Both the position numbers and the translations under genes were made by a program. The notes beneath the pieces are model-generated. The model was given only the letters and a program-made list of their open reading frames with translations, was not told the origin of the DNA and searched no databases. DNA of 64,000 bases from Bacteroidota bacterium (GTDB lineage: Bacteria; Bacteroidota; Ignavibacteria; Kapaibacteriales; UBA2268). The DNA lies in the NCBI GenBank assembly GCA_021780815.1, contig JAJXYC010000005.1, positions 62,001 to 126,000 on the forward strand, in the 5' to 3' direction. Position 1 is the stretch's first letter; each line of letters begins with the position of its first letter. Positions 25,346 to 28,953 of this stretch are shown here, piece by piece.

Positions 25346-25426
25346 GATTTCCTCAAAAAGAAAATTCAAAAATATGAAAAATAAAATTAAATAGTAGGAA
25401 AAAGTAAAATTTTACTTAAAAACAAG

Positions 25427-25499
25427 TGGATCTAAGGAGGCTCGAACTCCTGACCCCTTGAATGCCATTCAAGTACTCTCCCATCTGAGCTATAGACCC
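25427..25499 (-). tRNA. tRNA-Ala (anticodon GGC)
   Basis: The minus strand folds as a cloverleaf. The acceptor arms GGGTCTA and TAGATCC pair with one G-T wobble, the D arm has AGCTCAGATGGGAGAG, and the anticodon stem CTTGA/TCAAG holds the 7-base loop ATGGCAT with anticodon GGC. The T arm is AGGAG/CTCCT around TTCGAGC. The discriminator is A. The CCA end is not encoded, since C-T-T follows. The gene sits at the edge of the decayed restriction-modification island. Confidence 0.95.
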
Positions 25500-25568
25500 A
25501 AAACTTATCATTTTTTTATTGATATATTAACGAAAATAATATTTATGTATTTTTAATTTTCCCATCTT

Positions 25569-25645
25569 TTAAATTTTTGTCCCACATTGTTGTGGGTCTT
25601 TGCTCATTGGCATTCCGCAACTTTGACATTTTTTTTAGTATTCAT
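25569..25645 (-). pseudogene. Relic of a small zinc-ribbon protein gene
   Basis: On the minus strand, TGT at 25626-25628 opens KCQSCGMPMSKDPQQCGTKI before a TAA at 25569-25571. CQSCGMPMSKDPQ is a hallmark of a small zinc-ribbon protein family that normally runs to about 80 residues with more Cys pairs. The only suitable ATG (25643-25645, MNTKK) is one frame off, separated by a run of eight A; nine A would join it to the Cys motif. The 3' part is also lost. I read this as a frameshifted, truncated remnant; sequencing error in the homopolymer could explain only the first defect. Confidence 0.5.
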
Positions 25646-25666
25646 ATCAAAACATCAAAACTAAAT

Positions 25667-25805
25667 TTATTTGTTAATAACCTGTTTCAACAATTTGTCT
25701 GAACGTTTGATTTGTGAATCACTTTTGCCTCCTTGCTTTATGGCAATCTCATTTTAATTTTTTTCAATAACACATTTGCCTCTTCTTTCAAATTATTTTT
25801 ATTTA
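25667..25805 (-). pseudogene. Frameshifted remnant of a small unknown gene
   Basis: Immediately after the restriction-enzyme frame, one minus-strand frame reads NNLKEEANVLLKKI and a second frame, after a small indel near 25752-25757, continues NEIAIKQGGKSDSQIKRSDK and ends KLLKQVINK at TAA 25667-25669. The two parts read as one hydrophilic, helix-rich peptide of about 45 residues. Neither part has a good start codon. I cannot name a family; it may be an accessory gene of the neighbouring R-M cluster or the C-terminal tail of another broken gene. Confidence 0.35.
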
Positions 25806-26624
25806 TAGTCCAATTATTTTCTTCAAATCAGCAAAAAATTTGTCGAACATTTTTACTTTTTTGCTTTCTTCAATATTTGTTTCACTCAAAACATAACTGC
25901 CATCAGTATCGACTTCAACTATTGCACGACCTTTTTTTGTTGGTTTTTTTGATGTTAAAGTTCCATCTTCATCAGGCGTTACAAAATAAACTTTTATATG
26001 ATTAGTTGCTTTTGCTTGCAAAAGTTTCATTTTCCAATATCCTGTTTGTGCTATTCTTTCTCGTAATGTTACTTTTATTGACAAAACGGCAATAATTTTG
26101 CTTGTTTCAGGTTTATATATAACAATATCTACATCTGGTAAATGCGCTCTAAATTCTCCATAGTCAATATACAAATTTCGTTTTACTTGGCTTAAGTCGT
26201 CAGATAAATTTTTTTCAAAAGTTTTTTCAAGTGAGTTACCATTTATTACGGCTAATCCCATACTTTCAACTTCTTCTGTTATAATGTATTCAATCAATTT
26301 TTCAAGATTTTTGCCTTTAAATGCTCGCCACGATTACTCGTGGTCTTCTCCTTCAAAATCTTTTTTGTGTTGCTTTTTGGCTGATGCCAAAATTTCTGAA
26401 ATGCGGCGATAAGTATCTTTTCCGTATTTCTTTTTTTAAAAATCAAAATTTTTCAAATTTTCTTTTATCCAATCGGGAATGTCCGTTTTAAGAAATTCTA
26501 TAAACTTTTTTGCATTTTTTTCTGAATATTCTAATTCATTTTCTTCGCAAAAATCTTTAAAATATTCTAAAATTGTTGAATTAAAAAGAAATACATCTTC
26601 TTTTTTTATTTGATTGTTTTTCAT
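25803..26624 (-). pseudogene. Type II restriction endonuclease, BsaWI-like, broken by two in-frame TAA codons
   Basis: One 273-codon frame runs from ATG 26622-26624 to TAA 25803-25805, interrupted by TAA at 26436-26438 (after KENLKNFDF) and at 26334-26336 (context FEGEDHE, stop, SWRAFKGKNLEKLIE). The parts join without any frame change. The C-terminal piece has a PD-(D/E)xK-like core, LPDVDIVIYKP followed by AVLSIKVTLRERIAQTGYWK, which I recall from BsaWI-type enzymes that cut DNA within a CCGG core; the specificity is only suggested. In DHE-stop-SWRAFKG homologs would most simply have Gln, so CAA to TAA is the likely change. The gene lies four bases after an HNH endonuclease gene. Confidence 0.7.
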
Positions 26625-26628
26625 ATAT

Positions 26629-27690
26629 TTATCCTTTAAAAATGTTATTGTTATGGTATTCTAAAAAATCTTTATTGGGTTTAAAACGATTTGGTAAATT
26701 GATGTTTTTATTTTCATAAAAAATAAAATATTCTTTAACTATTTCAATATTAATAAAATCATAAATATATTTTGAAATTTTAATTTTATAATTGGGTGTA
26801 ACAGTTAATAAACCTCTATCAAATGCTCTATCGTGTAAAGAATTTAAACACAAACCATTATGTGGATTTAATCTATTTTTTTCATCAGAAGCCCAAGGCA
26901 TAATATGACTTGCGTTTAATAATTCAATAATTGGCAAATTTGTTATACAGCATTTATTTTGATATGAAGTTAACACAGCATTTCTAAAAAAATTTTGATT
27001 AACTCTCATTTTTACAATACTTTCACGTTCTTTACCCTTCGGAAAATCTTTATTTTGATTAAAAATGTATTCTAATTCTAAAATTTTGTTTTCACTTTCA
27101 ATAGCGTATTTTTCCCAATCGTTATTAAAATTATTCCATATATTTTTATCGTCAATTTCAATGTTTTCAATATCTTTATTAATTCCCAATTTTTCAAAAT
27201 TTCGCAATCTTTTGGCTATTTCTTTTTCTGATTTTCCGATTAGATTTGCAAAATTTACAATTAAAATATTTTTTGAATTTATTTCATCTAATGGAATTTT
27301 ACAAAATAAATTAAAAGCGGCTGTCAATTCATTATTTGTCCAACTATTTGAAATTTCATAAAGTAAAAAAACTGCATTTTCTATGTCAGTATCATTTTCA
27401 ACTGTAAAATTTATTTGAAAATTTTTTCCAAAACTTCCTTTTGTGCCATCTCTTTCTTTAAATTTAATTTTTGTTTGATATTTTTCAGTAATAGAAATAA
27501 CATCTCCAAGACACCAAATATCAATTTTAGGTTTAATTTTATGAACCAAAATATAGGCAAATCTTTTACCGCCTTTTTGAAATAGACCACACCATTTATC
27601 TGTTTCAATTGCGTGTAAATCAACAATCAATGGTTCTAATTGATTTACTAATTTTCTAAAAAGTTGTTTTGAAATAGATATATTTTCCAT
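26629..27690 (-). CDS. HNH endonuclease with extra N-terminal domain
   Basis: A 353-residue protein whose C-terminal half is an HNH_2-type nuclease: the central motif is CCITNLPIIELLNASHIMPW, followed by NPHNGLCLNSLHDRAFDRG, which provides the metal-binding and catalytic His/Asn residues. The middle part (NELTAAFNLFCKIPLDEIN, then NFANLIGKSEKEIAKRLRNF) is the helical region commonly preceding this nuclease. The first 110 residues (WCGLFQKGGKRFAYILVHK through DTDIENAVFLLYEI) form a separate alpha/beta domain, somewhat like DUF5655, and may read DNA sequence or modification. It lies three bases after the methyltransferase and four before the BsaWI-like gene, and is the only intact member of the cluster. 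Confidence 0.85.
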   Translation of the reverse strand: MENISISKQLFRKLVNQLEPLIVDLHAIETDKWCGLFQKGGKRFAYILVHKIKPKIDIWCLGDVISITEKYQTKIKFKERDGTKGSFGKNFQINFTVENDTDIENAVFLLYEISNSWTNNELTAAFNLFCKIPLDEINSKNILIVNFANLIGKSEKEIAKRLRNFEKLGINKDIENIEIDDKNIWNNFNNDWEKYAIESENKILELEYIFNQNKDFPKGKERESIVKMRVNQNFFRNAVLTSYQNKCCITNLPIIELLNASHIMPWASDEKNRLNPHNGLCLNSLHDRAFDRGLLTVTPNYKIKISKYIYDFINIEIVKEYFIFYENKNINLPNRFKPNKDFLEYHNNNIFKG

Positions 27691-27693
27691 TAA

Positions 27694-28953
27694 TTAAGCC
27701 GCTAATTTATCTGTGTTAGAAGTTTTTGCAAATCTGCCTGTTTCTGCATCTCTTGTTGATGGTAACATTTTAGATGGAATTTCACGATGAATAATTTTAT
27801 GAGTTTTAAAACCAATGTTTTCAAATTGTTCTTTGAAAACTTCTGCGTTAAGTATTTCTACACCATTAAACTGCGTATTTCCAATTACAATACAAGCACG
27901 ACCACCTTTTTTTAAAACTCGTTTTGTTTCTATCCAAGTTTCGAGCATATCGGCAAAATAATTTTTTACTTCTTTACCTTTTTTGTTATTTCCTAAATTT
28001 TTTACAATTTCGTTTGCTAAATTGCTTTGTAAATCAATATTTTCACGTTCTTTATATGCACTGCCCATAAATTTTTTACGAAATTCGCTTAATTCGTTCA
28101 AATAACCAAGCCATAGTAATGGTAATTAGTGTAAATCAGCATATTCATAAGAAGTTACATAAGGTGGACTTGTTACAATTAAAGTCGCTTTTTCGTCTTT
28201 ACAAGGCAAATTTCTTGCGTCTTGACATTTTATTTCTCTGTAATTATCAATATTTTGTTTTATTTCGCTGTTTAATATTTTATCGAATTCAGCGTGTTTT
28301 TTTATCATTTTTTTTGTCTGCTCAAAAAATGTTTTTATCGGATCGTAATCTTTTTTCTTCAAATCTCTTGTTGGCTTTACACTTTTTTGCATCCAAATTG
28401 AACAAGTTTTAAGAATTTGTGCAAATGAAACCAAAAAGAAATCTCTAATATCCTTGTTTTGATTTTCAAGTATTTTCGTTAATAAAATTGCCAATTTATT
28501 TTTTGTTCCGTTTTTAAACCAATAATCAATACGTTCATTTTTAGGTATTCTTTCTAATGCTTCTTTTAAATAATAATCATATTGTCCATTTAATCTATTA
28601 GTTATATCAAAATACAAATTTGTAAATTCCTCTGACAATAAAATAGGATTTATAGGTGTTGTTTTTACTTTTGCTATTAATGTTGCAATTTCATTAATAT
28701 CTGTTCCTTTGCCAATTCTTTGATTAACAATGCTTTCTAAAACAGTTGTTCCACTACCACTAAAAGGGTCTATTATAATATCTCCATTGTTACTATTCTC
28801 AACTATCAATCTTTGAGCAAGTTGTGGAATAAATTTTGCAGGATAAGTATAATAACCGTGTGTAATATAAGATGTATCTTTAATCGTTTTTTCAACAAAC
28901 GACCAAGATTTATCTATTTCTATTTCTTTTAACATATCAATTTGTAAATCCAT
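27694..28953 (-). pseudogene. DNA methyltransferase (probable N4-cytosine), broken by one in-frame TAA
   Basis: A 419-codon frame with a single TAA at 28126-28128. The N-terminal piece has the SAM-binding motif IIDPFSGSGTT near residue 60 and, after about 200 residues that could hold the target recognition region, the catalytic TSPPYVTSYEYADLH; the stop follows at once. The frame resumes as LPLLWLGYLNELSEFRKK and ends with the KKGGRACIVIGNT strand. YADLH-stop-LPLLWLGY points to a lost Gln (CAA to TAA). The SPPY motif favours N4-methylcytosine. Motif I before motif IV is the alpha/gamma-like order. The break follows the catalytic motif, so the first piece alone is unlikely to be active. A G7 run lies 10 bases upstream of the ATG. 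Confidence 0.75.

What the first reader, a model, noticed from the sequence alone, without database searches (positions are those of the whole stretch)
25803..28953. R-M island with three in-frame TAA codons at likely Gln sites
The methyltransferase frame (27694-28953) is interrupted once (28126-28128) and the BsaWI-like nuclease frame (25803-26624) twice (26436-26438, 26334-26336). In all cases the frame is unchanged on both sides. All three stops are TAA, and in YADLH-stop-LPLLWLGY and DHE-stop-SWRAFKG the missing residue reads as Gln, one C-to-T change from CAA. Decay by nonsense mutation is the simplest reading, with loss of both R and M. A stranger option is recoding of TAA in an acquired cluster; this is weakened because the host genes here use TAA as a normal stop.
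Basis: partly seen in the sequence, partly recalled or inferred. Interest (0 to 1): 0.75.

Follow-up and report, generated by a model that had tools for sequence, protein, structure and literature searches.

The report
Dead restriction-modification island split by nuclease cassette
A bacterial DNA-defence gene pair has recently been broken by two stop codons and by a second nuclease cassette that landed across the join between its two genes; this is ordinary gene decay, not a new genetic code.

Summary
All three TAA codons exist, in frame, on the minus strand. Only two interrupt conserved genes: one in the methyltransferase (28126-28128) and one in the BsaWI-type nuclease (26334-26336). At both sites every relative found encodes Gln. 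The third (26436-26438) is not inside the nuclease. Relatives, including one of the same genus, have M and R overlapping directly. Here 74 bp of that junction are replaced by a 1,264-bp insert (26437-27700) carrying an intact HNH nuclease gene and a 62-aa gene. The third TAA is that small gene's end, which happens to be in frame with the R remnant. M also lost its last 11 codons; R lost its start and first 13 codons.

Recoding is rejected. None of 40 tRNAs reads UAA, RF1 and RF2 are intact, and 223 of 272 coding-like ORFs sampled end in TAA, as do HNH and ORF62. TAA is also the expected nonsense codon here (74% of nonsense chances at 30% GC). Substitution counts show the inactivation is recent.

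Best reading: a mobile BsaWI-like R-M module, recently killed, overwritten at its junction by an HNH + small-gene cassette. The most interesting by-product is the small-protein family of ORF62, which elsewhere sits directly behind R genes in R-M operons and has no Pfam family.

The parts
27694..28953 (-). Methyltransferase (M) remnant: N6/N4 (TSPPY) MTase; nonsense at codon 276, last 11 codons lost at the insert junction
   Evidence: Pfam PF01555 1.9e-19; 92% aa identical to an intact 430-aa protein in a same-genus genome; DNA homology ends at 27701
28126..28128 (-). Genuine in-frame nonsense codon TAA in M, 10 residues after motif TSPPY, at a position that is Gln in every relative
26437..27700 (-). 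1,264-bp insert replacing 74 bp of the M-R overlap; carries HNH and ORF62; 22.5% GC against 27-31% for M and R
   Evidence: blastn breakpoints against L041 and L042; GC
26629..27690 (-). Intact HNH_2 nuclease gene, 353 aa; residues 114-353 match 240-280-aa HNH nucleases of R-M loci, residues 1-113 have no relative found
   Evidence: Pfam HNH_2 1.5e-10; PADLOC HNH 4.5e-73; homologues start at about residue 115
26436..26624 (-). ORF62: complete 62-aa small gene ending in TAA 26436-26438; member of an unnamed small-protein family that elsewhere follows restriction genes
   Evidence: ribosome-binding-like AAAGGA just upstream of ATG
26436..26438 (-). TAA reported as the second nuclease stop; it is the native end of ORF62 at the right insert junction, not an interruption of R
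25803..26435 (-). BsaWI-type nuclease (R) remnant: lacks start codon and first 13 residues, nonsense at 26334-26336; PD..K and R-E-R region still present downstream
   Evidence: Pfam RE_BsaWI 6.4e-34; 88-92% aa identical intact copies in L041 and L042; R-(D/E)R motif definition from PMC4652773
26334..26336 (-). Genuine in-frame nonsense codon TAA in R at an invariant Gln (DHE-Q-SWR in all 14 distinct relative sequences)
25500..25795 (-). Decayed flank between R remnant and tRNA-Ala; includes a zinc-ribbon-like relic (CQSCGMPMSKDPQQCGTKI followed by a stop)
   Evidence: three-frame translation

Best explanation
The island was a compact two-gene Type II R-M module: a permuted N4/N6 methyltransferase overlapping a CCGG-family BsaWI-like nuclease. 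It moves as a unit and sits at different places in related genomes (shown). In this lineage, illegitimate recombination put an HNH-nuclease + ORF62 gene pair across the M-R overlap, replacing 74 bp and truncating both genes (shown by breakpoints; the mechanism is inferred). M and R also each took one nonsense mutation at a conserved Gln (shown). M then ends before motifs V-VIII and R lacks its start, N-terminus and upstream region, so both are very probably inactive (inferred). The HNH gene is open with its motif intact and may still work, either on modified DNA or under another MTase of the cell (inferred). Loss of R-M function is recent, because the rest of both frames still shows strong purifying selection (shown).
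For: Intact overlapping M-R modules 92%/88% identical in a same-genus genome and in a Limnohabitans MAG contig. Sharp homology breakpoints at window 27701 and 26436 against both. Gln conserved at both real stops. No UAA-reading tRNA; RF1 and RF2 intact; TAA ends 223 of 272 coding-like ORFs. ORF62 homologues are stand-alone small genes. Window branch: 38 synonymous, 17 missense, 2 nonsense, no frameshift, compatible with a short neutral phase (about 4-10% of the branch). Module boundaries lie within about 10 bp of the M start and R stop, and the genomic neighbours differ.
Against: Two nonsense codons against no visible excess of missense is slightly more than simple neutral decay predicts (P about 0.04-0.19 for the neutral fractions that fit the missense count best), although the case was picked because it has stops. 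No raw reads were available, so strain mixture or consensus error at the two codons cannot be excluded. The order of insertion and nonsense mutations is unknown. No protein was tested.
Confidence: 0.88

Rival explanations
1. TAA is read as Gln (recoding or efficient suppression) in this genome or in the acquired cluster, so M and R are functional.
For: Both real stops are at invariant Gln sites and the frames still show purifying selection on this branch.
Against: None of 40 tRNAs has anticodon UUA; RF1 and RF2, which both read UAA, are intact; TAA is the main stop; HNH and ORF62 inside the island end in TAA; even with readthrough M lacks its C-terminus and R its N-terminus.
Confidence: 0.02
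2. The stops are assembly or strain-mixture artefacts and most cells carry open M and R frames.
For: The genome is a 20-contig assembly, probably from a metagenome, and no reads could be checked; both changes are C-to-T type, a common consensus error at modified bases in some long-read data (own knowledge).
Against: The 1,264-bp insert independently truncates both genes, so the module would be broken even without the two stops.
Confidence: 0.07
3. Restriction-gene swap: M was kept as partner and the HNH + ORF62 pair replaced BsaWI-type R as the working nuclease; only later did M fail.
For: M-HNH-ORF62 copies the M-R-small-gene order of intact operons; HNH starts 3 bases after the stop of the truncated M and is in its frame.
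Against: M lost its conserved last strand (YPTEYILIMEKL) in the same junction and now has a nonsense codon; where a methylation gene is seen near relatives of this HNH it is an m5C methyltransferase or Vsr gene, not this M type.
Confidence: 0.15
4. M works as two pieces, re-started after the stop, as in natural two-subunit methyltransferases.
For: The stop falls between motif IV and the following motifs, a place where a two-part enzyme could be divided (own knowledge).
Against: No full-length relative is split; the C-terminal piece is itself truncated; its first possible starts are 9 codons (TTG) or about 29 codons (ATG) after the stop.
Confidence: 0.02

Closest known systems
BsaWI-type (CCGG-family) Type II restriction-modification systems
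   Same: R matches Pfam RE_BsaWI (6.4e-34) and keeps the R-(D/E)R motif as RER; M is directly upstream and overlaps R in relatives
   Different: Both genes are interrupted and truncated here; the native M-R overlap is gone
HNH nucleases of R-M loci (PADLOC PDLC04132, Pfam HNH_2; C-terminal part resembles NCBIfam PT-DNA_restrict)
   Same: Residues 108-352 align along most of the PADLOC model; the HNH motif region is present
   Different: 113-aa N-terminal extension with no relative found in 396 phylum genomes; well below the NCBIfam cut-off (58.8 against 180 bits); no intact methyltransferase next to it
Decayed or nested R-M islands of bacterial genomes
   Same: Compact gene pair at different loci in related species, broken by point nonsense and by insertion of another gene
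   Different: The insert sits exactly over the M-R overlap and consists of another restriction gene with its small partner
Bacterial stop-codon reassignments (UGA to Trp or Gly)
   Same: In-frame stop at a conserved residue
   Different: UAA, not UGA; no matching tRNA, no loss of release factor, TAA still the main stop

Membership tests
BsaWI-type Type II R-M system | R protein matches the BsaWI nuclease family | tested here: met
   PF18643 E 6.4e-34 over residues 143-246 of the read-through frame
BsaWI-type Type II R-M system | R-(D/E)R CCGG-recognition motif four residues after the catalytic Lys | tested here: met
   SIKVTLRER in window R against K165 and R169-D170-R171 of BsaWI (PMC4652773), compared by eye; second acidic residue (D175) not matched
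BsaWI-type Type II R-M system | intact open M and R genes | tested here: not met
   nonsense in both and loss of the M C-terminus and R N-terminus
TAA-recoded genetic code | tRNA with anticodon UUA | tested here: not met
   40 tRNAs found at E <= 0.001, none UUA, CUA or UCA; genome 99% complete, so a missed tRNA is unlikely but possible
TAA-recoded genetic code | TAA avoided as terminator | tested here: not met
   223 of 272 coding-like ORFs in 464 kb end in TAA
TAA-recoded genetic code | loss or change of release factors reading UAA | tested here: not met
   prfA and prfB both over curated cut-offs with no internal stops
TAA-recoded genetic code | other conserved genes with internal TAA | tested here: inconclusive
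   codon-usage scan of 464 kb found no such pattern, but at its threshold it also missed the two known sites
Recently inactivated pseudogene | nonsense with the frame otherwise preserved, close intact relatives | tested here: met
Recently inactivated pseudogene | relaxed selection on the branch | tested here: inconclusive
   missense/synonymous ratio similar to relatives; only a short neutral phase fits
HNH_2 restriction nuclease | HNH_2 domain over cut-off, open full-length frame | tested here: met
   41.2 against 21 bits, 353-aa frame without stop
HNH_2 restriction nuclease | nuclease activity | not testable with these tools
   no experiment possible

The most novel reading that the evidence does not exclude
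ORF62 belongs to an undescribed small-protein family (57-93 aa, core F..YLE.D.YEWLKDNFK.FF) that is a regular third component of restriction operons, placed directly behind the nuclease gene. It follows HNH and BsaWI-type nucleases in seven R-M loci of one subgroup, and a GmrSD-like and a GHKL-ATPase gene in the subgroup nearer ORF62. In this window it travelled together with its HNH nuclease into another R-M system.
Probability: 0.45. Interest if true: 0.45.

Novelty: new member of a known kind. Interest (0 to 1): 0.27.

Why it matters
It removes an apparent TAA recoding from the list and shows how an insertion next to an in-frame small gene can imitate an extra nonsense codon. The locus catches an R-M module very soon after inactivation, with another restriction cassette placed exactly over its M-R overlap. 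It also exposes a small gene family tied to restriction nucleases that could be tested as a regulator or partner.

Tried and rejected
Recoding of TAA: rejected by tRNA set, release factors and stop usage. Third stop as nonsense in R: rejected by N-termini of intact relatives and by ORF62 homologues. Insert as a mobile element with other copies: none found in the sequence held, in plasmids or in viral contigs. Phage or plasmid origin of R: no match. Empty insertion site in the genus: not resolved, because in relatives tRNA-Ala is next to tRNA-Asp and the neighbouring genes are arranged differently. More ORF62-family members in plasmids or viral contigs: none. Structure of the HNH protein: single-sequence model useless (pLDDT 33), so no fold search was made. 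Paper searches on decayed R-M gave only general background that I did not use as evidence.

Full report
WHAT IS THERE. The window is part of contig 18 of a 2.63-Mb, 20-contig, 99% complete genome. On the minus strand, in transcription order, lie M (28953-27694), HNH (27690-26629), ORF62 (26624-26436) and the R remnant (26435-25803), then a decayed stretch and tRNA-Ala (25499-25426). M matches N6_N4_Mtase, R matches RE_BsaWI (6.4e-34), HNH matches HNH_2.

THE THREE TAA CODONS. All are at the stated positions and in frame. For M, relatives with the YE(Y/F)ADLH motif all have Gln after it. For R, 14 distinct relative sequences all have DHE/NHE-Q-SWR. In the four relatives aligned as codons, both sites are Gln codons. 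So two stops are true nonsense mutations at invariant Gln. The third, 26436-26438, is different. DNA homology to both close relatives starts exactly at window 26436 and, on the M side, stops exactly at 27701. Between these points the relatives have 74 bp (end of M, start of R) and this genome has 1,264 bp.

THE INSERT. It carries the HNH gene and ORF62 and has 22.5% GC, against 27.4% for M and 30.5% for the R remnant. The HNH core (residues about 115-352) is 36-49% identical to 240-280-aa nucleases across the phylum, a few of them next to m5C methyltransferase or Vsr genes; it keeps the ASHIMPW..NGLCLN..HDRAFD region. Its first 113 residues had no relative in 396 phylum genomes. ORF62 has stand-alone homologues of 57-93 aa. 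A profile made without ORF62 finds it at 4e-10 (search space set to 10,000), and the two subgroups of the family align with 95% probability. In ORF62's own subgroup the homologues end within about 10 residues after the conserved W..NLK.F core, so the TAA at 26436-26438 is at or very near the native end of this gene. That ORF62 is in frame with the R remnant (one chance in three) produced the apparent nonsense codon.

WHY NOT RECODING. The 40 tRNAs found include both Gln tRNAs (UUG, CUG) and none with UUA, CUA or UCA. RF1 and RF2 are intact and over their cut-offs. Of 272 coding-like ORFs of at least 150 aa in 464 kb, 223 end in TAA. HNH and ORF62, inside the island, end in TAA. The screen of 250,000 genomes describes UAA/UAG-to-Gln as a eukaryotic nuclear change and discusses UGA for bacteria (PMC8629427). 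Finally, read-through would not restore the ends of M and R lost at the insert.

CHANCE AND TIMING. With the synonymous substitution spectrum of these genes, 74% of possible nonsense changes give TAA and 16% are Gln-to-TAA, so identical stop codons carry little information. On the window branch M and R together have 38 synonymous, 17 missense and 2 nonsense changes and no frameshift; the two relatives have 66/19/0 and 55/37/0. A neutral phase of about 4-10% of the branch fits both missense and nonsense counts tolerably; a long-dead pseudogene does not. Nonsense is slightly over-represented, which could mean selection for inactivation, but the locus was chosen for its stops, so I do not press this.

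MECHANISM. Shown: an M-R module whose homology to relatives begins about 10 bp before the M start and ends about 7 bp after the R stop, at different genomic places (tRNA-Ala/dipeptidase here; mevalonate-pathway genes in G003); a replacement insert over the M-R overlap; two nonsense codons. Inferred: M (cut after TSPPY, before its remaining motifs) and R (no start, no N-terminus, early stop) are inactive; HNH may still act. Because no working methyltransferase is next to it, an active HNH would have to cut modified DNA, be protected by another of the MTases in this genome (one search lists weaker MTase matches on contigs 4, 14 and 16), or be silent. The order of events is not known.

SIDE RESULT. 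The ORF62 family: one subgroup is found directly behind the nuclease in M-HNH-small-gene operons (L171, L198, L199, L200, L203), behind a RE_BsaWI nuclease after an MTase (L202), and behind a RE_BsaWI nuclease (L201); in the subgroup nearer ORF62 it lies behind a GHKL ATPase (L165) and a GmrSD-like gene (L168), with no clear partner in L164, L166 and L167. Pfam has no family for it. The count is small and has no control set, so this remains a lead.

VERDICT. Observation partly confirmed, decay supported for two of three codons, recoding rejected. An ordinary, recently inactivated R-M island with an instructive insertion; interest 0.27.

Noticed in passing
window 26436-26624 (-); L171, L198-L203, L164-L168: Unnamed small-protein family (57-93 aa, core F..YLE.D.YEWLKDNFK.FF) directly behind restriction nuclease genes in R-M operons and behind GmrSD-like or GHKL ATPase genes; no Pfam family.
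   Followed up: partly
window 27352-27690 (-): 113-aa N-terminal extension of the HNH nuclease with no relative in 396 phylum genomes or in plasmids (weak DUF7000 match, E 0.0055); could be a reader domain for modified DNA.
   Followed up: partly
window 25500-25795 (-): Decayed sequence downstream of R, including a zinc-ribbon relic (CQSCGMPMSKDPQQCGTKI then stop), next to tRNA-Ala; homology to intact M-R modules ends right after the R stop.
   Followed up: partly
window 25426-25499: In four same-genus genomes tRNA-Ala(GGC) is adjacent to tRNA-Asp; here tRNA-Asp is on another contig and the R-M island lies next to tRNA-Ala, so the island sits at a rearrangement point.
   Followed up: partly
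L041: A 3.2-kb contig binned as Limnohabitans carries an intact M-R pair about 92% identical to the window's: horizontal transfer or a binning error.
   Followed up: no
L055, L057, L058, L045: More distant M-R modules of this family carry a third gene, a 226-235-aa second methyltransferase, behind R; the window and its closest relatives lack it.
   Followed up: no
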